The position numbers and the translations under genes were made by a program. Under the pieces are notes generated by a model. The model did no database searches and was not told where the DNA came from. It was given only the letters and a program-made list of their open reading frames with translations. Of a stretch of DNA of 35,570 nt, positions 11,993 through 21,236 are shown piece after piece (the first letter of the stretch is position 1; the number at the start of each line of letters is the position of its first letter). Source of the stretch: Nitrosovibrio sp. Nv4 (GTDB lineage: Bacteria > Pseudomonadota > Gammaproteobacteria > Burkholderiales > Nitrosomonadaceae); contig CAMDAX010000004.1 of assembly GCA_945888885.1 (NCBI GenBank), forward strand, positions 1-35,570. The letters run 5' to 3'.

Positions 11993-12223
11993 CTGTATAT
12001 CTTAAAAAATCGAGCCACTGAAAGTCTGGTGCACTATACCCAAATCATGCCGTTAATACCATCGCCCCCTTGCGTATCCACTGTCTATATTTTACGACAA
12101 ACCAATTTGTTGCCACCCAACTCCGACGGATAGTCGTGCCGATTGCAACTTGTGCGCAATCCCTTGGCGGCCAACCAGATAATAACAATGTTTGCGACTT
12201 CATGACCTGTAGTCAAATTATAT

Positions 12224-12253
12224 GTTTATTATCTAATGCACTGGATAATAAAC
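12224..12253. repeat. perfect 10-bp inverted repeat (hairpin) downstream of the defence operon
   Basis: GTTTATTATC-TAATGCACTG-GATAATAAAC. Confidence 0.8.
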
Positions 12254-12305
12254 TTGCCTACCCTGATGACTGACGCCGACCTGTGCGGAATATTCTTTGA
12301 TCGTC

Positions 12306-12923
12306 TCAGGTATGAGTACCACAGGCCATGAGTTTATTCTCGAATCGTACAAACGAAACAGACCTACGCAGTCTTCTCCAATTCGGCGGATTCTTGGAGA
12401 GTATCTTGACAGCATGAACTTTATCGTCATAACGCCACCCGCGAGCCGTCTTGAAATGATCTATCATGGCCGACTTCGGGTTTTTCACTCTGTCAGGCTT
12501 GCTGACTTTCTTGACAGCATAGAGATGCGTCGCCACTGAAAGAAAATCTGAAATACATTTCTCGTCAGCCAAAACCCAACTTTCCAGTTCCTGCTCAATG
12601 CACACCAGATATACTGGCTGAGTTGCTGTAATTCCGGCTTGTGCTAATGCTTGTAATAATGCCTGCCGTTCATCATACCGACAGGGCTTGTTCTTCCTGT
12701 CAGGCCATGCGGGGCGCAAATCCCAGACGATCAACACACAATTACAACCATCTGCTAACAGTGATGTGGCCACCCTGCCCGCATCGGTGAGCAGGGTGGG
12801 CTTGTTGTCGAGTGTGCGCGAAATCAGCTGTACCCCAGGCCGCAGCTGACTGGCAAGATATTCACACACTTGTTTGTCCGCACCTTGAGGCCCGCATTCA
12901 AAGATGAAACCTATCTTCATCAT
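12306..12923 (-). CDS. DUF4276 / TOPRIM-like protein, last gene of defence operon
   Basis: 205 aa; IGFIFECGPQGADKQ..., CVLIVWDLRPAW, VCIEQELESWVLADE; start overlaps the stop of the ATPase gene by 4 bp. Confidence 0.6.
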   Translation of the reverse strand: MMKIGFIFECGPQGADKQVCEYLASQLRPGVQLISRTLDNKPTLLTDAGRVATSLLADGCNCVLIVWDLRPAWPDRKNKPCRYDERQALLQALAQAGITATQPVYLVCIEQELESWVLADEKCISDFLSVATHLYAVKKVSKPDRVKNPKSAMIDHFKTARGWRYDDKVHAVKILSKNPPNWRRLRRSVSFVRFENKLMACGTHT

Positions 12924-14044
12924 GCACCGCCACCAGCAAGATTGCCCATGGTGTAGAGCTTGCCAGGGGCGAAGTCAGCCGCCCAACGCTGCAAGTTGTC
13001 GCTATCGGCTGGTCGCAAAAAGCGTGGCTGCCCTTTACTGTCGCGTTCCACCAGCACCAGATGTTCCAGCGTCAGCAAATCCAGCAAATAGGGCGAGTGC
13101 GTCGTCACAATAACCTGCGTAATGCCGCTCAATACCGCATTGCGAATTTCCTCGACAATCAAGTGAATGCTACGCGGATCAAGGCCGTTCTCGACTTCCT
13201 CCACCACAATCAGCGGCGGGGGACTCGGGTGCCGCAATAAAGCCAGCAAGGCCAGCATGCGCAACGTACCCGTGGAAAGCATCCAGCCAGGCACCTTGAA
13301 ATCCGCCTCCGTTAATTGCAGGTAAGCCTTGCGTTCCAGCTCCGAAGTAACAGACGGCTGCAAATCGCGTGCATAGGGCAGCACGTAAGACATGGTCTCG
13401 ACGATGCCATCGAATGCCGCCTGATCAAGCCGACGAATGTCGAGCAGAAAATCAGCAATGTTTGAACCGTCTTTCGCCAAGCGTACAGCGCCGCCAGTGC
13501 GCTGCTGAGGTTGGGGTGTACCCATGCGCTCGGGTTGAAGGGTAAGGAACTGCCAATTTTGTATCTGGTTGGCAATCTCGCCATGCTTGCCCCGTGCCCG
13601 CGAAAGGATGGACTGGCCAGCATCGCTATCCAAGACTACTCGCGCCATGGCACTCTCGATGCACCACCCATTGGCATGGTGCGAGGATTCTTGGGAAATG
13701 AAAATGCGGTTGGCTGCTGGGTCGTTATTCACCTTCATTTCAATGCGAGTGGATTTTAGTACCGATTTTCCGATGGCCAAGTTGAAAGCTATTGGATTCA
13801 CTGCCTCGCCTGCCCGCTCTTTCGCCTCCACCGACTTGTGGCGCGCATGCTCGATACCCATCCAACGCTGCATAGCGGAGTCCAGCCCATAGCGCACGAT
13901 AGTCTGGTAGGTTTCCAGTGCCTCGATCAGACTGGACTTGCCGCTGCCGTTATGGCCGATAAAAACAGTGAGCGGCCCTAGCCGGATCGTCTTGCTATCG
14001 ACAATCGCTTTGAAGTTACGCACACGGACACTTTGCAATCTCAC
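12920..14044 (-). CDS. AAA/ABC-type (OLD/RecF-like) ATPase
   Basis: Walker A GHNGSGKSS, signature-like LSTGTLRMLALLAL, Walker B LIVVEEVENGLDP, H-loop TTHSPYLLD. Confidence 0.9.
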   Translation of the reverse strand: MRLQSVRVRNFKAIVDSKTIRLGPLTVFIGHNGSGKSSLIEALETYQTIVRYGLDSAMQRWMGIEHARHKSVEAKERAGEAVNPIAFNLAIGKSVLKSTRIEMKVNNDPAANRIFISQESSHHANGWCIESAMARVVLDSDAGQSILSRARGKHGEIANQIQNWQFLTLQPERMGTPQPQQRTGGAVRLAKDGSNIADFLLDIRRLDQAAFDGIVETMSYVLPYARDLQPSVTSELERKAYLQLTEADFKVPGWMLSTGTLRMLALLALLRHPSPPPLIVVEEVENGLDPRSIHLIVEEIRNAVLSGITQVIVTTHSPYLLDLLTLEHLVLVERDSKGQPRFLRPADSDNLQRWAADFAPGKLYTMGNLAGGGA

Positions 14045-17000
14045 CTTACTAATCCCCTTTCTACATCGCGGTATGCGTTGAGTGCCGCTAGTTTGACAGG
14101 TTCGGCGACCAGCGGGAAGGTAGTGAGGATGTGGGCAAACTCGGATTCGGTGAGGCCGTACAGGTGGGCGATCAGGCCGTCGAGTTCGGCGCGCAAACGG
14201 GCACGTTCGAGGGGCTCCAGAGGCTGGTGGCGTTTAAGGCCGACTTCTTTGGCGAGATCGTCGAATTCTGGGGTGGTGCAGATCAGGTGGGCGGCGCGGG
14301 TGGCGATGGGGGGAAAACGTGGATCGGTAGAGCTTATACGCGGAGCTGGTAACTGATAAAACGCATACATTGAAATCGTTGTTGTTACGCGCTGCCTGAT
14401 CATGAAATCGAATATAAAGCTATTCAAAACAGCAACTACAAACAATTGTTCTTGTGGTGACAAAGCAGAGTCTCGCCTTTCAACCATCAGCTTGTGGTTA
14501 GCGAATACCTGCCTAGGCAAGATTGACGAAATCAAGCTACGTTCATTAGTGTTGGATGCAATTTCGCGGAATGCCAAACGGTAGTCCTGATAGTGAAACC
14601 CAATTTCCCGTTGCACTTTACCCAGCTTATTTTTGGCTTCTGTTTCAATGAGCCAATATTTTGGGTCAGCATATTTTGAATCAAACTGCCAGATCATCTT
14701 GCCTTCATACAACGGCAACCGACCAACCCCCGGCTCAGTCTTGAACAGTTTGCTGTCATTGGTCATGTGGAATTCGTTGCTTAAGCGAAGATTCCACGTC
14801 CCTTCAATTTCCTCGCCCAGCAGCGGAAAGCGCAGCATCTTTTCGGCAATATGCACGTCGAGTTCGCTCCTGAATTCCATCACCGAATGCGAATCGGGCG
14901 AAAGGCGCTTAATCAGGTCAGTCGAAAGACGAACAAAGTTGGAATCCGTGTAGATGAAATTCGCAAGGTCTCTAGGTTGCACAGCCTCGCGCGGGTTGAT
15001 GCGGAAGGTGGCTGGAAACTCATTGGTCACCCCGCCTTTTTCGAAGACAAGGAAACAGAATTTTTGGGCGTGATGCACACCTTCAAATATATATTTCTCG
15101 TTTGAGAGGGAGATCAAAACTTCGACACTGGAATGTTCGAACAACATTTGCCGCAGGCCGGTTGCGCCAAGGTCTGTGTAAATGCTCCCCGGTACGACGA
15201 TTCCACAGTGGCCACCCGTTCTTAACAAGGAAAAGCAGCGCTCAGTAAAGAGCTTATAGAGATTGATGTCGCTGCCGGTCTTCTTACCGTTGACCACGGC
15301 GGACTGAAAGCCGAATTCCGGCGTAGCACGGAAGTAGGCACTGATATGTGGAAACCGGCTTTCGTAGACCAGCCAGGCATCGCGCACCGCCTTGTCCTTT
15401 AGCAGCATGCCTTGTTCTTTCTCAAACTCCTTGATGGTCATCTTGTTCTTGCTGACCAGTTCGGAATGCTCGGCGAAAAACTCCTTGGCTTGTGGTTTGA
15501 ACACTTCCCACGGCGGATTGGTGAGGATGATGTCGAAGCCGCCATTTTTCTGCATGATCTGGTCGAACATATAACCCCAGTGGAACGGAGTTTGAGCGTC
15601 AATGTGTTCGCGCGCGACTTTGATCTTTTTCGGTTTGCCCAAAGCGTTTTTAGTGGCGTCCCAAGTAGCTTGTTCGTATTTCACGCCGAGCGCTTCGAAC
15701 TGGTCGCGCAGCAATTCGTTGAGCGTGCTTGTGGCCTCCTTCATGGATTGGTCAATATCATCGCGTAGATTGCGCAAATTGATCTCACGCCCCAACAAAC
15801 CTGCAGTGTAGCGGTAGGCTTGCAGCTTGCGGTTCTTCTCCTCCAGTAGTCTGCGGAAAGGGATCTTGAACAAATCGTCCTGCTTACGCTCGAATTCGTG
15901 TTCATCCACACGCATCAACCCGATCAGGGAGTTACCGGGCAGGATGTTGAAGTCTATGTTGGGCAGCGGCTCCAACTCTTCCACCTTGCGCACCGAGGAC
16001 ACCATGGTAAGAAACAGCCGCAGTTTGGCGATTTCAGTAGCCTCTTGCATAGCATCCACACCGTAGAGGTTGTCGGTGACAATGCGGCGTTTGATGTAAT
16101 AGGCGACGCTGGGGTGTTCCTGTTGAATAGACTTCAACCAAAATTGCAGGGCATCGCTGGCACTCATTTCGGCACGCCCCACTACGGCGGAATAAATGTT
16201 GATGAGCACCTTGAGCGCGGCCACCAGAAACGCGCCCGAACCCACCGCTGGGTCAAGAATGTTGATGGCGGGCAGCACTTCATGTACCAGCTTGAGCGCG
16301 GTGACGTTGTCCATTTTTGCCAGCATGTCGGGCACGCTGGCAAAGCTTACTTCCTTCAAACCCAGTTCCGGCACGGCTGGCGCATGGATGCGTTCCAGTA
16401 CCAGTTTGTGGATGCTGCGCTCAGCCAGATAGTTGGTGATTTCCGGGCGGGTATAGTAAGCGCCAAAGGCTTTCTGGTTGATGTATTTCTCGAAGATGTA
16501 GCCCAGCACGTCCGGGTTGATTTCGTCGGCATTACCACCGGGTGTATCGTCCAGATTCCACGAGAATGAGGCGAACAGCTTGAACACGCCTTCAAAGGCG
16601 CGGTCTGGAATGCGCAAGGTCGTACCCAGCCGGGGCTGTTTGTCTACATCGAGTTCCAGCGTGTGGTGCAGAAATAAGCCGCCGTTGAGATAGGGAATGT
16701 CGCCCGTCAGTGCTTGCACGGCGGCGGAGCGATCTGCCTTGGGTTTGGCGAATGCCTCGAAGAACAACGCATTCAGGAATTCACCGAAAAAACGATCCTG
16801 CCCGCACGTCTGTGAAGCGGCAAATTTTTTAGGCAGGTAGTCATAATCGGCGTGATCGAGAAAACCTTTTTTTTGCATGAACCAGACGAACATCAGTCGG
16901 TTGAGGATGACCGAGGCATACCAGCGGCGGTCGCGCTCATTGTCTATGCCTTCGATTTCCGCGAGCAGGTTGCCGTGCTGTTCCTGATAGGCAGTAAAAA

Positions 17001-17538
17001 ATCGCTTGGTGGTTTTTTCCACATCCAGCGCGGATTCCATGCGACGCGCCACTTCCAGCACGGGCAGGCGACCTGTCGCATCCAGCTCGTAAAGCTCCAC
17101 CACCATGGCCTGCAACTTGGAGGCAAACAGATCAACTGGCTGGCCGCGAAAGTATTCGTGGCGGCGGGGTATGGTTTTGGGTTTGCCAGTTTCGCTATCC
17201 TTGGTGCGTTTGACCCAGTACCACAGGCTTTGGGTGGGCTGCTCGGCACGGTCGAGAAAGATCAGCAGGTTTTCATAATGCGATTGCGACACCTGCCGCC
17301 AGATCGCTATGCGCTGCGCCTCATCCGGCCAGCCTGTTTCGGTGATGATTTCCAGCACGGCCACGCCTGACAGTTCGGCGACCATGCGCCGCTGGTAGCG
17401 GATGTCTTTGGCTGCATCGTCTCGCCAAATGCGCTCACCCGCAGGTGGATGATTCCAACCCAGCACGTCGGTGAATAGCAAATTGAAATTCAGTTGCTGG
17501 AGGTGGGTGCTGAATTGTTCGAGGTTGAGGCCGGACAT
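14041..17538 (-). CDS. Eco57I/PglX-like N6-adenine DNA methyltransferase
   Basis: 1165 aa; motif I NILDPAVGSGAFLVAAL, motif IV DIILTNPPWEVF; long N- and C-terminal extensions (C-terminal specificity-like region). Confidence 0.92.
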   Translation of the reverse strand: MSGLNLEQFSTHLQQLNFNLLFTDVLGWNHPPAGERIWRDDAAKDIRYQRRMVAELSGVAVLEIITETGWPDEAQRIAIWRQVSQSHYENLLIFLDRAEQPTQSLWYWVKRTKDSETGKPKTIPRRHEYFRGQPVDLFASKLQAMVVELYELDATGRLPVLEVARRMESALDVEKTTKRFFTAYQEQHGNLLAEIEGIDNERDRRWYASVILNRLMFVWFMQKKGFLDHADYDYLPKKFAASQTCGQDRFFGEFLNALFFEAFAKPKADRSAAVQALTGDIPYLNGGLFLHHTLELDVDKQPRLGTTLRIPDRAFEGVFKLFASFSWNLDDTPGGNADEINPDVLGYIFEKYINQKAFGAYYTRPEITNYLAERSIHKLVLERIHAPAVPELGLKEVSFASVPDMLAKMDNVTALKLVHEVLPAINILDPAVGSGAFLVAALKVLINIYSAVVGRAEMSASDALQFWLKSIQQEHPSVAYYIKRRIVTDNLYGVDAMQEATEIAKLRLFLTMVSSVRKVEELEPLPNIDFNILPGNSLIGLMRVDEHEFERKQDDLFKIPFRRLLEEKNRKLQAYRYTAGLLGREINLRNLRDDIDQSMKEATSTLNELLRDQFEALGVKYEQATWDATKNALGKPKKIKVAREHIDAQTPFHWGYMFDQIMQKNGGFDIILTNPPWEVFKPQAKEFFAEHSELVSKNKMTIKEFEKEQGMLLKDKAVRDAWLVYESRFPHISAYFRATPEFGFQSAVVNGKKTGSDINLYKLFTERCFSLLRTGGHCGIVVPGSIYTDLGATGLRQMLFEHSSVEVLISLSNEKYIFEGVHHAQKFCFLVFEKGGVTNEFPATFRINPREAVQPRDLANFIYTDSNFVRLSTDLIKRLSPDSHSVMEFRSELDVHIAEKMLRFPLLGEEIEGTWNLRLSNEFHMTNDSKLFKTEPGVGRLPLYEGKMIWQFDSKYADPKYWLIETEAKNKLGKVQREIGFHYQDYRLAFREIASNTNERSLISSILPRQVFANHKLMVERRDSALSPQEQLFVVAVLNSFIFDFMIRQRVTTTISMYAFYQLPAPRISSTDPRFPPIATRAAHLICTTPEFDDLAKEVGLKRHQPLEPLERARLRAELDGLIAHLYGLTESEFAHILTTFPLVAEPVKLAALNAYRDVERGLVR

Positions 17539-20500
17539 TTAGTTAAGGCTTCCGTTTCTTGAGGCAATCAGCCCCATAGAGCAAACGATCTTTGGCTCAT
17601 GTTGTTTTGCGTCGTCTTCGGCGTAGGTGAGCTGGTTTTCCTCGCGCATGGATTTTACGGCATCGCTCAGTTGTTCATCATTTACGCCGCCGCGCATCAG
17701 GCGGTTGAGTGTGTCCGCAGCACTTTCCAGCAAGGGGCGGGCGTAAATGTCTTCGATGGCGCGCTCTAATTCGACGTCTGCGAACAGTGAGTTGTGCAGA
17801 CTGCGAGCATATTCCTTAAGACGGTCATAACACTTGCGGCGCGGGCTGGAAGGCCGCCCCAAACCGCCGCCTATAGCCTTGTCCTGAGTAACGGCCAGAT
17901 TGAGTCCGATAGCGACCAGTTCGTGATGGTTTTCGGCACGTTCTAGTGCTGACTCTTCAGGTGTGCATTCCGCCACGCGCAGAATGGTGAATTGCGATTC
18001 GGTGATGGCATGGCCTTGCGCATTGACCCAGGCGAGGTGGTCGTTGCCTTCGGGAGATTTGACGTAGACGAGGGCGCTGTCGCCCGCAACCCTCTCCCCT
18101 AGTCCCTCTCCCGCCTGCGGGTAATAACCAGCGACTTGCCCGCTTGCGGGTTTAATCGAATGGCTAGTAGTCCTATCAGCGAAACTTAAATGCTTGGCGG
18201 TATAAATTACGGGTGGCAATGCCTCGATCTTGCGCGCCAGTTCAGGGTTGTCTTGTGTGGCAGTTTTCCAGATTTGCCAGGCGTAAGAAGCCAAGTCAAC
18301 TTCATCATCCTGATCATCCAGCGCACCAGCGGTTTGTAGAGAAAGTTTGCGCAAACGCTCGGCATCTTCGTCCTCAAAAAACGCTTCGTCCGTGCCTACC
18401 ACTTCGGCATTTTCATGCAGGCGTTGCGTGATGCGCGCACGCAGGTTGATGATACGTTCCACGCCATCGGCAGGCAGGAAGGAATAGCAACGAATTTCCT
18501 CAGCTTTCTGGCCGATGCGATCCACGCGGCCTGCGCGCTGTATGAGGCGAATGATCGCCCAAGGCAGGTCGTAATTCACCACCACGGCGCAGTCTTGCAA
18601 GTTTTGCCCTTCGGAAAGCACATCGGTACAGATCAACACGCGCAATTCATCCGTCTTGCTGACTTGCGCATGGTTAGATTGCGGCGAGAAGCGGCAAGCG
18701 ATGGCATAGGGGTCGGCAGATGCGCCGGTGACTGCCGCCAGCGCCTTGATGCCGCGCGCTTGCAACGCGCGCCCAAGGTAACGTGCGGTATCGGCAAACT
18801 GGGTGAATACCAGCACCTTGTTTTTGCCATGGGTGTGCGTAATAAGGTTTTCCAGTTGAGTGAGTTTGCGGTCTTGCTCGATATTCCATGCACCGTTACG
18901 TTTGAGCAAATCGCGCAATGCGGAGATGTCGTCGGCAAGATGTTCGCGCAGTTCTTTTTTGAACAGATGCGAGTCGATCCATTTGAAGCGTTTGCAGTAT
19001 TGATCGGCATACTGGCGGTAGCTGGATGCAGCAGGGCTGTTTGCGTTGCTTTCAGCTTCTTCGATCACGCCATCTAGCAAGTCTTCCTGCTCGGCATGCA
19101 AACCTTCGGCATCTTCGTCAAAACGGTCTGCGTCGAGAATGCCCGCATCCAGTGTGCCGATGGGCAGCTCCAAGCCGTTATCAATCGCGTACAGGTAAAT
19201 TTCATTGCGCAGGATGTGCCGTTCGATGGATTGCATAAATGAGAAGCCGCTGGATTCGAGGCGCTTGAACAGGTTGGTGCGGCAAAACCCGATCAGCCGC
19301 TGACCCGCCTTGCCAAGATCATCCATCTGTTTACGTTCGGCGGCGCTGGCGGATTTAAGCAGCAGAGAATCGCCATATTTTCCCAGACCATAACGCGAGA
19401 GGCGCAGGCGGCTGATGACATCTACCACTTCCAACGAGTACAGTTTGGCATACTGGTCGGCAGGATCATTTTCATCCACGGCAAACCCGAGCGAAATCGG
19501 CTTGCGTGTCGGAAAATAGAGTTTTTCGCCAGTGTGCACCTTGAGGTAACGGCGGCCTGTTGTGGCATCCTGCTCGGTGTAGTGCTGGAGGATAAAGCTG
19601 CGCGTGCGGCGCACCATGTAGAGGCGGATCAGTTCGCGCCAGTCATCCAGCACATCGCTTTTTTCCATCGCCAGAATCGAATGCGGCGGACATTGATATT
19701 GCCGCTCGAATTGCGCGTCGGTAATATTCTTTGTGCGCATGAAGTGTTCGGGCCGCACGCCGATATTGGCGCGCTCTTCCACGAATAACCGCAGTTGCGC
19801 GGAAAGGTCGGTGAGTGTTTTGTTGTAGGGGGTGGCCGTCAGCAGAATGACCCGTGAGTCGCATTGCTTCACGTATTCGTGGATAGCCTTGTAACGCCTG
19901 CCTTCGCGGTTGCGCAGGTTGTGACTTTCGTCGATCAGCACCAGCTTGTAGGGCTTGAGGTCTTTCAATCCTCTAGTCTTGTGTACCACCTCTGTCAGCG
20001 ATTTAACCGTGCCACGCAGGCCATACTCCTTGCGGTAATGCTCCCACATCGGCACGAGGTTTTTCGGGCAGATGATTAGCGTTTCATAGTTTTGTTCGTC
20101 TTCCACCATGCGCGCCAAGGCGGTGGCCATCATGGTTTTACCCAACCCCACCACGTCGCCGATGATGACGCCACGGCGCTTATGTAAATGGCGCGCGGCG
20201 ATTTTCACCGCCGCCTTCTGGAAGTCGAACAATTCTTCCTCAAAACGAACCGGCAAACGGAACTGGCTCAAGCCCGCACGCGCTTCGACGCTGAGGTGAT
20301 AAGCCATGTTCAGGTAGATGTGGTACGGCAGCACCAGCTCTACGCGCGCCCAGCTTTGCTCGATCACTTCTGCCAATTCAGCGGAAAGATCAATACACCA
20401 GTTGTCCCTCCAGCGAGCATCGAACCATTCTGAAAGTTTAATGGTCGCATCGTGATCAAGCACGTCAATGTTGAGTTCGCCCTGTTTGGAAAGCCCGGAG

Positions 20501-20994
20501 AAAGTCAGGTTGCTGCTGCCGACAAAACCAGTGATCGGATTGTTAGCATCTTTGCGAAACAGGAGATAAAGCTTGGCATGCAGCGGATAAGGCAGAAATA
20601 ATTTGACCTGTACCTTACCTTCGCGCAGTTGCCTGGCGAGGCGTTGCAAACCTTTTTCGTCAGCGGAAGTAGGAAGACCAAAGGTGATTTGTTCGCGTAA
20701 GTGAGCAGCAAACTTGTGCTTGATTTCGCTGGCGTGCGCATTGTCCATCAGCGCGTTATCACCAGCTGCTTGGTACAGCGCACGCACTTCTTCATGCGGC
20801 GGACGTTGCATACCAATCAATACGCGGCATCGCTGCCCTGCATCGGGCTGCCACTCAGCAATCAAATCATCAATCGTGCGCCATCCGCGTAGATTGAAAT
20901 AGCCCACACAAAAATCAGCACGCTCGGAAACAGCAAGTGTGGCACGAAGCGCAGGCAATAGGGACTGGTCTATATTGTCAAAAACACGCGGCAT
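17539..20994 (-). CDS. SNF2/HepA-type helicase with N-terminal phospholipase D-like domain
   Basis: 1151 aa; PLD-like HAKLYLLFRKDANNPITGFVGSSNLTFSG; Walker A GDVVGLGKTMMATA; LIDESHNLRN; VFTQFADTARYLGRAL; LIQRAGRVDRIGQK. Confidence 0.92.
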   Translation of the reverse strand: MPRVFDNIDQSLLPALRATLAVSERADFCVGYFNLRGWRTIDDLIAEWQPDAGQRCRVLIGMQRPPHEEVRALYQAAGDNALMDNAHASEIKHKFAAHLREQITFGLPTSADEKGLQRLARQLREGKVQVKLFLPYPLHAKLYLLFRKDANNPITGFVGSSNLTFSGLSKQGELNIDVLDHDATIKLSEWFDARWRDNWCIDLSAELAEVIEQSWARVELVLPYHIYLNMAYHLSVEARAGLSQFRLPVRFEEELFDFQKAAVKIAARHLHKRRGVIIGDVVGLGKTMMATALARMVEDEQNYETLIICPKNLVPMWEHYRKEYGLRGTVKSLTEVVHKTRGLKDLKPYKLVLIDESHNLRNREGRRYKAIHEYVKQCDSRVILLTATPYNKTLTDLSAQLRLFVEERANIGVRPEHFMRTKNITDAQFERQYQCPPHSILAMEKSDVLDDWRELIRLYMVRRTRSFILQHYTEQDATTGRRYLKVHTGEKLYFPTRKPISLGFAVDENDPADQYAKLYSLEVVDVISRLRLSRYGLGKYGDSLLLKSASAAERKQMDDLGKAGQRLIGFCRTNLFKRLESSGFSFMQSIERHILRNEIYLYAIDNGLELPIGTLDAGILDADRFDEDAEGLHAEQEDLLDGVIEEAESNANSPAASSYRQYADQYCKRFKWIDSHLFKKELREHLADDISALRDLLKRNGAWNIEQDRKLTQLENLITHTHGKNKVLVFTQFADTARYLGRALQARGIKALAAVTGASADPYAIACRFSPQSNHAQVSKTDELRVLICTDVLSEGQNLQDCAVVVNYDLPWAIIRLIQRAGRVDRIGQKAEEIRCYSFLPADGVERIINLRARITQRLHENAEVVGTDEAFFEDEDAERLRKLSLQTAGALDDQDDEVDLASYAWQIWKTATQDNPELARKIEALPPVIYTAKHLSFADRTTSHSIKPASGQVAGYYPQAGEGLGERVAGDSALVYVKSPEGNDHLAWVNAQGHAITESQFTILRVAECTPEESALERAENHHELVAIGLNLAVTQDKAIGGGLGRPSSPRRKCYDRLKEYARSLHNSLFADVELERAIEDIYARPLLESAADTLNRLMRGGVNDEQLSDAVKSMREENQLTYAEDDAKQHEPKIVCSMGLIASRNGSLN
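18083..18150 (-). repeat. in-frame palindromic mini-repeat inside helicase CDS
   Basis: CCCGCAACCCTCTCCCCTAGTCCCTCTCCCGCCTGCGGG plus CCCGCTTGCGGG hairpin; encodes PASGQVAGYYPQAGEGLGERVAG. Confidence 0.65.
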
Positions 20995-21056
20995 ATTTCT
21001 CTTGTTGTTTCGTGTAAATACGGGGTAGCGTTAGTTATTCTTCATCTTGATGAGCA

Positions 21057-21076
21057 AGGCGGGGCATATGCCGCCT
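21057..21076. promoter_or_regulatory. palindrome upstream of the defence operon, candidate operator or UTR hairpin
   Basis: AGGCGG-ggcatatg-CCGCCT, also containing the perfect palindrome GGCATATGCC; 63-82 nt upstream of the helicase start. Confidence 0.4.
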
Positions 21077-21236
21077 CTATAAATTTCCCCTTGCTGTTTA
21101 ACATTCCATTCTCATAATTCACCAGCCCTGCTCACATTTACTATTCACCGCGACCATTCACTGTGACTTGGCTGTACGCTCTGGGGTAATCCTCTTCATC
21201 CGAATAAGCCACCACTGTGACTGAAAGTTTTTAGGC

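What the first reader, a model, noticed from the sequence alone, without database searches (positions are those of the whole stretch)
12306..20994. Four-gene helicase-methylase-ATPase-DUF4276 operon: candidate restriction-like anti-phage system
Seen: four minus-strand genes packed without gaps. Transcription order is PLD-SNF2 helicase (1151 aa), N6-adenine methylase (1165 aa), AAA ATPase (374 aa), DUF4276/TOPRIM-like (205 aa). The junctions are direct abutment (17538/17539), a 4-bp overlap (14041-14044) and a 4-bp overlap (12920-12923), which implies translational coupling as one system. Established: Eco57I/PglX-like methylases with SNF2/PLD helicases occur in DISARM and BREX, and OLD-like ATPases with TOPRIM partners occur in abortive-infection systems. 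Inference: this combination lacks the other signature genes I would look for, with no DrmA, no DUF1998/DrmB, no PglZ and no BrxL in the window. It may be a hybrid or a less-characterised system. It may also match a 'restriction-like' (RL-type) entry in defence catalogues, which I cannot verify here.
Basis: partly seen in the sequence, partly recalled or inferred. Interest (0 to 1): 0.9.

Follow-up and report, generated by a model that had tools for sequence, protein, structure and literature searches.

The report
Restriction-modification core with plug-in defence module
A bacterium carries a four-gene anti-virus cassette made of two separable parts, a two-gene DNA-cutting and self-marking core and a swappable two-gene ATPase-plus-partner add-on, inserted at a spot where a sister species keeps a different defence system.

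Summary
In detail: four intact minus-strand genes (12306-20994) with the stated junctions. They are not one obligate system. Related loci show a stable two-gene core, a PLD-nuclease/SNF2 helicase plus an Eco57I/BrxX-like N6-adenine methylase, spread over many phyla and plasmids. A separable ATPase+DUF4276 pair matches PADLOC's candidate HEC-01. It sits directly downstream of the methylase in 13 loci. It is missing from most other core loci, where the same slot can hold a fused OLD-like ATPase-TOPRIM. Trees of core and pair conflict strongly (AU p<1e-38), while the two proteins of the pair agree, so the pair moves as a unit.

The cassette lies between ruvB and ybgC. That site is empty in six of eight same-genus genomes, and one other carries a Type III restriction locus there. 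Against the sister cassette, the methylase target-recognition region has been replaced (48% versus 95% identity), as expected of restriction-modification. A second hypervariable patch lies in the ATPase.

It is not DISARM, BREX, Hma or Gao-RL; defining parts were tested and absent. Best mechanism: ATP-dependent restriction by the core, with the pair as a back-up, possibly a PARIS/PrrC-like guard (inferred). New variant of a known kind.

The parts
17539..20994 (-). Core gene 1: PLD (BfiI/NgoFVII-type) nuclease fused to SNF2/RapA-like helicase-translocase, 1151 aa
   Evidence: PLDc_2, SNF2 and Helicase_C above cut-off. H139, K141, N162, E173, Walker A GxGK, DESH box and QRxGRxDR invariant in 27 homologues. 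Best PADLOC model C3a139 'HKD+Snf2'.
14041..17538 (-). Core gene 2: N6-adenine DNA methylase (Eco57I/BrxX-like), 1165 aa; motif I DPxxGSGAF, catalytic NPPW 674-677; N-terminal domain with endonuclease-like strand order but no conserved ExK
14299..15318 (-). Target-recognition region of the methylase (residues about 741-1080), replaced between two sister cassettes
   Evidence: About 48% identity to the sister cassette against 95% (residues 1-740) and 90% (1085-1165) on either side
12920..14044 (-). Accessory gene 1: RecF/OLD/SMC-type ABC ATPase, 374 aa (HEC-01A)
   Evidence: Best PADLOC hit HEC-01A, 2.6e-48; AAA_21 4.6e-27; Walker A, ENGLDP and TTHSP motifs conserved in 10 homologues
13550..13804 (-). 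Hypervariable patch of the ATPase (residues about 81-165)
   Evidence: About 40% identity to the sister cassette against 93% in the rest of the ATPase; dN 0.51 against 0.03-0.08
12306..12923 (-). Accessory gene 2: DUF4276 protein, 205 aa (HEC-01B); invariant E9, D68, E112, E114
   Evidence: PF14103 35.5 bits above cut-off; HEC-01B 6.6e-10; alignment; AlphaFold2 pLDDT 91
20995..21236 (-). Left flank between ruvB and the helicase; likely promoter region (inferred)
   Evidence: Shared with the sister cassette L119, absent from empty sites
11993..12305 (-). Right flank between DUF4276 and ybgC, with a 30-bp inverted repeat at 12224-12253

Best explanation
A mobile anti-phage cassette made of two modules in one transcription unit. 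Module 1 is an ATP-dependent restriction-modification system. The methylase recognises an asymmetric site through its exchangeable target-recognition region and marks host DNA with m6A. The PLD-SNF2 protein is recruited to unmarked DNA, translocates along it and cuts it with its PLD nuclease. Module 2 (HEC-01) is a portable ATPase plus DUF4276 pair translationally coupled to the methylase. It most likely acts as a second line: the ATPase senses infection or interference with module 1 and releases or activates the DUF4276 protein, a predicted TOPRIM-like nuclease, to stop the phage or the cell, in the manner of PARIS or PrrC. Shown: anatomy, intactness, separability, module exchange, recognition-region replacement, insertion at a site that carries another defence system in a sister genome. 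Inferred: enzymatic activities, the restriction route, and everything about how module 2 is triggered.
For: Core pairing: the helicase lies upstream of the methylase in nearly all close relatives whose contig allows the test. Catalytic residues of PLD, helicase and methylase are invariant. The methylase fold is closest to BrxX/PglX, CamA, DrdV and MmeI. The recognition region is replaced between sister cassettes and its identity is uncorrelated with the methylase core across loci (Spearman 0.07). A plasmid relative in Synechocystis (helicase plus methylase on pSYSX) corresponds by exclusion to M.Ssp6803IV, which makes GA(m6A)GGC. Insertion site: empty in six same-genus genomes, same cassette in G152, Type III restriction locus in G157. 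Module 2: pair congruent with itself and incongruent with the core. The downstream slot is filled instead by a fused OLD-like ATPase-TOPRIM in L009 and L039, with the same 4-bp overlap.
Against: No phage assay or methylome exists for this locus. The DUF4276 fold search found no significant TOPRIM match, so nuclease activity is unproven. The ATPase hypervariable patch does not covary with the methylase recognition region (Mantel r -0.11, P 0.70), which gives no support to a specificity-matching role. The guard reading rests on analogy. The methylase assignment in Synechocystis is by exclusion and that locus lacks HEC-01.
Confidence: 0.6

Rival explanations
1. Two independent defence systems merely share a transcript: a restriction core and an autonomous abortive-infection pair that gains expression and mobility by riding in the core's operon, with no functional contact.
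For: Relatives of the pair occur alone beside an AIPR gene on a Nostoc plasmid, and between a SNF2 gene and a methylase on an Aeromonas plasmid. Core and pair trees conflict. Unrelated modules (SLFN_AlbA, PIN, HipA-like, DUF3800, DUF6932 pair) also embed in these loci.
Against: In this subfamily the pair always sits at the same place, in most loci with a 4-bp overlap to the methylase. The methylase C-terminal tail tracks the ATPase (Mantel r 0.63, P 0.008), although close linkage alone could give that.
Confidence: 0.3
2. All four proteins form one restriction complex, with the ATPase-DUF4276 pair as an essential clamp or second nuclease.
For: Tight packing, repeated in 13 loci from several phyla.
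Against: Most core loci lack the pair and are intact (18 of 26 with enough downstream sequence have no HEC-01); the trees are strongly incongruent.
Confidence: 0.07
3. The core is an epigenetic regulator rather than a restriction system.
For: Stand-alone adenine methylases such as CamA, a structural match, are regulators.
Against: Close partner with an intact PLD nuclease and helicase; recognition-region replacement; hotspot shared with a Type III restriction locus; carriage on plasmids.
Confidence: 0.03

Closest known systems
HEC-01 (PADLOC Hma-embedded candidate 01: HEC-01A ATPase + HEC-01B DUF4276)
   Same: Both proteins match their PADLOC models and are adjacent in the same order
   Different: Here it follows a PLD-SNF2/N6-methylase core instead of sitting inside an Hma locus; the second protein matches HEC-01B only weakly (37 bits)
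Type IIG/IIL restriction-methylases, Type ISP enzymes and BREX BrxX/PglX
   Same: Methylase sequence and fold; asymmetric m6A marking expected
   Different: No recognisable active nuclease on the methylase; nuclease and translocase are on a separate PLD-SNF2 protein
ATP-dependent PLD restriction enzymes (SauUSI, NgoAVII/CglI type; from general knowledge)
   Same: PLD nuclease working with a helicase motor
   Different: Here fused to a SNF2/RapA-like motor and paired with an Eco57I-type methylase; no SRA or B3 domain was found by Pfam
Gao RL-type system (NCBI NF042963 + NF042964 loci)
   Same: PLD-SNF2 protein together with a methylase and ATPases
   Different: Distant PLD-helicase (146 bits against 1100), no DUF1156 methylase, different ATPases
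PARIS (AriA ATPase + AriB TOPRIM) and OLD/Gabija ATPase-TOPRIM
   Same: ABC-type ATPase with a predicted TOPRIM-like partner; a fused OLD-like protein fills the same slot in L009 and L039
   Different: DUF4276, not DUF4435; no AriB hit
Hma (helicase, m5C methylase, ATPase)
   Same: Helicase + methylase + ATPase make-up
   Different: Methylase is N6-adenine; HmaB absent from the genome

Membership tests
HEC-01 | AAA ATPase matching HEC-01A | tested here: met
   2.6e-48, the best of all PADLOC hits
HEC-01 | Adjacent HEC-01B (DUF4276) | tested here: met
   6.6e-10 to HEC-01B, Pfam DUF4276 above cut-off, 4-bp overlap. PADLOC's own score thresholds not available here
Hma | m5C methyltransferase HmaB | tested here: not met
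   No HmaB in the genome; the methylase is Eco57I/NPPW; definition from PMC8565338
DISARM | DrmB (DUF1998/MZB) | tested here: not met
   PF09369 absent from the 81%-complete genome
BREX | PglZ in the locus | tested here: not met
   Only PglZ is on another contig, C99
Gao RL (NF042963/NF042964) | PLD-helicase above the NF042964 cut-off | tested here: not met
   146 bits against 1100; own genome has no match at E<=1e-60
Gao RL (NF042963/NF042964) | DUF1156 methylase NF042963 | tested here: not met
   Present in L129 (1392 bits), no hit for the window methylase
BREX-related (BR) systems | DUF499 ATPase and DUF1156 methylase | tested here: not met
   No such Pfam domain in the four proteins; definition from PMC12839542
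PARIS | AriB (DUF4435) partner | tested here: not met
   No hit for the 205-aa protein; AriA hits look like generic AAA_21/AAA_15 profiles
Type IIG restriction-methylase | Active PD-(D/E)xK nuclease on the methylase | tested here: not met
   Strand order fits that fold, but no conserved ExK; position 63 varies (E/Q/H/L/M) and 65 is Lys in only one sequence
Restriction-modification (general) | Exchangeable target-recognition domain | tested here: met
   Replacement between sister cassettes
Restriction-modification (general) | Restriction of unmodified DNA and protective methylation | not testable with these tools
   Needs phage plating and a methylome

The most novel reading that the evidence does not exclude
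The methylase 3' end is a conserved docking slot into which different ATPase-nuclease guards are plugged, either the split HEC-01 pair or a fused OLD-like ATPase-TOPRIM. These guards watch the restriction core or its phage inhibitors through a fast-evolving ATPase patch, so one restriction core serves as a platform for exchangeable back-up immunity.
Probability: 0.35. Interest if true: 0.72.

Novelty: new variant of a known kind. Interest (0 to 1): 0.5.

Why it matters
The core is a widespread two-gene restriction-like unit, found in this survey in Proteobacteria, Cyanobacteria, Actinomycetota, Planctomycetota, Chloroflexi and others. In the sources held here I found it only under generic names (PADLOC's candidate C3a139, 'REase_MTase_IIG', 'helicase-related protein'). 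The loci show a restriction core acting as a host for portable defence modules, and give HEC-01 a consistent position next to a methylase. That makes the question 'are embedded modules guards of restriction?' directly testable with a compact system.

Tried and rejected
Single obligate four-gene system: rejected on presence/absence and tree conflict. Gao-RL, Hma, DISARM, BREX and BR membership: tested and rejected. PARIS membership: no AriB. The idea that the ATPase hypervariable patch co-specifies with the methylase recognition region: tested, not supported. DUF4276 fold search against the PDB: no significant match, so the TOPRIM label stays unproven. Search of viral contigs with the ATPase profile: only weak, mostly short ATPase-motif matches; phage records with the DUF4276 protein: no match. 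Papers on DUF4276 with phage ATPases: none found in the library. PADLOC model PDLC00663, tried as a possible HmaC, turned out to be an unrelated effector; HmaC was not tested.

Full report
OBSERVATION. The four ORFs, sizes, abutment and 4-bp overlaps are exactly as reported. Pfam places PLDc_2, SNF2-rel_dom and Helicase_C in the 1151-aa protein, Eco57I in the 1165-aa protein, AAA_21/AAA_15 in the 374-aa protein and DUF4276 in the 205-aa protein, all above curated cut-offs. The rest of the window that I looked at is housekeeping (ruvAB, ybgC-tolQ-tolB, queC, lytB, DAHP synthase, a pilus gene).

INSERTION SITE. The cassette lies between ruvB and ybgC. Eight same-genus genomes were examined. In six, ruvB and ybgC are about 70 bp apart with nothing between them. 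G152 has the same four genes. G157 has a different insert at the same site: a Type III restriction locus (methylase in two frames, ResIII-type helicase), a Schlafen-AlbA protein, and a DUF6932 protein with a partner. The site is therefore one where defence cargo is exchanged. I saw no integrase beside it. The window, G152 and G157 share about 230 bp upstream of ybgC that the empty sites lack.

CORE MODULE. Close relatives have a helicase homologue upstream on the same strand in nearly all cases where the contig is long enough. Exceptions (for example L021, L040, L053) have other or unrecognised upstream genes, and distant relatives (below about 500 bits) mostly lack it. PLD residues H139, K141, N162 and E173, the Walker A lysine, DESH box and QRxGRxDR motif are invariant in 27 homologues. 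Key methylase motif I residues and NPPW are invariant in 25. The methylase model (pLDDT 76) matches BrxX/PglX, CamA, DrdV, BsaXI, BpuSI and MmeI. Its first 130 residues have the strand order of a PD-(D/E)xK domain but no conserved ExK, so the PLD domain of the helicase is the likely nuclease (inference). The core is also on plasmids of Synechocystis, Anabaena, Pelobacter and Rhodococcus, and a more distant version on a Gordonia plasmid. On pSYSX, two papers place M.Ssp6803IV on that plasmid and give its motif as GA(m6A)GGC (PMC6604393; PMC7296061). The only other annotated methylase there is the Type I enzyme (about 2 kb of the plasmid not viewed), so the core's relative is probably M.Ssp6803IV. 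From memory, the original 2018 paper assigns it to slr6050 and reports it essential; that paper is not held and this is unverified.

RECOGNITION-REGION REPLACEMENT. Window and sister cassette L005 (same site, another genome of the same genus) are 99% identical in the helicase. The methylase is 95% identical in residues 1-740, about 48% in the recognition region (741-1080) and 90% at its C-terminal end. Across 11 loci the identity of this region is uncorrelated with the methylase core (Spearman 0.07), the signature of exchanged target-recognition domains. Silent divergence is 0.045 in the helicase, 0.43-0.78 around the recognition region and about 0.9 in the ATPase, against 0.08-0.23 in flanking housekeeping genes. 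A recombination tract thus probably spans the methylase and ATPase. dN/dS in conserved parts is 0.03-0.13, so both alleles are maintained.

ACCESSORY MODULE. PADLOC names the pair HEC-01A and HEC-01B. HEC stands for Hma-embedded candidate, found by 'guilt by embedding' (PMC12988326). Thirteen loci carry the full pair directly downstream of this methylase: the window, L005, L006, L008, L010, L011, L012, L015, L020, L032, L127, and the Anabaena and Calothrix plasmids. Of 26 core loci with enough downstream sequence, 8 have the pair and 2 have a fused 590-aa ATPase whose C-terminus has VEGESDER and DYD motifs of an OLD-type TOPRIM. The slot starts with ATGA or GTGA overlapping the methylase stop in most pair loci and in both OLD-like loci. 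A broader HEC-01 family also occurs alone next to AIPR (Nostoc plasmid) and between a SNF2 gene and a methylase (Aeromonas plasmid). Exchange is clear. L127 has a core 54% identical to the window but an ATPase 81% identical in its conserved part, while L011 and L012 have cores at 72-73% and ATPases at 48-51%. Mantel: core versus ATPase r 0.14, P 0.27; ATPase versus DUF4276 r 0.78, P 0.004. AU tests reject the core tree for the pair and the pair trees for the core at p<1e-38. The combined pair tree is not rejected by either ATPase or DUF4276 data.

SECOND HYPERVARIABLE PATCH. ATPase residues 81-165 are about 40% identical between sister cassettes against 93% elsewhere (dN 0.51 against 0.03-0.08). 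This patch follows the ATPase phylogeny and not the methylase recognition region. A surface that meets changing phage proteins is the natural reading, but untested.

DUF4276 PROTEIN. AlphaFold2 gives pLDDT 91. Strand order and the positions of E9 (end of strand 1), D68 (end of strand 3) and E112/E114 (after strand 4) resemble a TOPRIM layout, but Foldseek found nothing significant. I treat TOPRIM-like nuclease as plausible, not shown.

OTHER EMBEDDED GENES. Between helicase and methylase, or just upstream of the methylase, relatives carry Schlafen-AlbA proteins (L007, L009, L010, L011, L013, L017), PIN, DUF3800 and HipA-like genes. L013 has a DUF6932 pair downstream of the methylase whose partner protein is 54% identical to that in the G157 Type III locus, so the same add-ons travel with different restriction cores.

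MEMBERSHIP. The locus fails defining tests of DISARM (no MZB/DUF1998), BREX (PglZ only on another contig), Hma (no HmaB; N6 not m5C), BR systems (no DUF499/DUF1156) and the NF042963/NF042964 system that I take to be Gao's RL (the RL name rests on my memory). The pair passes as HEC-01. The core works like a restriction-modification system and has the exchangeable recognition region expected of one; cleavage and protection are untested.

MECHANISM. Shown by sequence: intact motifs, module separability, exchange, site. Inferred: (1) asymmetric m6A self-marking; (2) PLD-SNF2 translocation and cutting of unmarked DNA, as in ATP-dependent restriction enzymes; (3) the pair as second line, by analogy with PARIS and PrrC, which link an ATPase-nuclease effector to anti-restriction or restriction systems (from general knowledge). 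Step 3 is the weakest (about 0.45); an independent rider is the main rival (0.3).

LIMITS. The genome is an 81%-complete metagenome assembly. The scan used near-exact peptide words, so distant loci are under-sampled. Counts are of loci, not independent events.

Noticed in passing
window 12224-12253; L124 9804-9833: A 30-bp inverted repeat (10-bp arms, 10-bp spacer) lies in the shared right flank. In G157 the arms and surroundings have the same orientation but the spacer is reverse-complemented with one mismatch, as if it had flipped.
   Followed up: partly
L124 1291-9690: At the same ruvB-ybgC site G157 holds a Type III restriction locus with its methylase apparently split in two frames, plus Schlafen-AlbA and a DUF6932 pair.
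   Followed up: partly
G000 contig C99:4215-4742 (L162): A PglZ-family gene (218 bits) elsewhere in the window's genome, suggesting a separate BREX-type locus.
   Followed up: no
L009 6985-8049 against L007 6298-8007: The embedded Schlafen-AlbA protein in L009 lacks about 215 central residues, including the HATPase-like region, relative to L007.
   Followed up: no
L013 13570-15172 and L124 8153-9690: A DUF6932 protein plus an uncharacterised 325-332-aa partner travel with two different restriction cores; PADLOC matches only the first (PDC-M63A).
   Followed up: partly
L160 8001-15348 (Gordonia plasmid): A distant actinobacterial version: NgoFVII-type PLD-helicase, methylase and an ATP-binding protein with 4-bp overlaps, but no detected HEC-01 homology.
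   Followed up: no
L164 2217-8266 (Aeromonas media plasmid): HEC-01-like ATPase and DUF4276 embedded between a SNF2 gene and a methylase behind a WYL gene, an Hma-like context.
   Followed up: no
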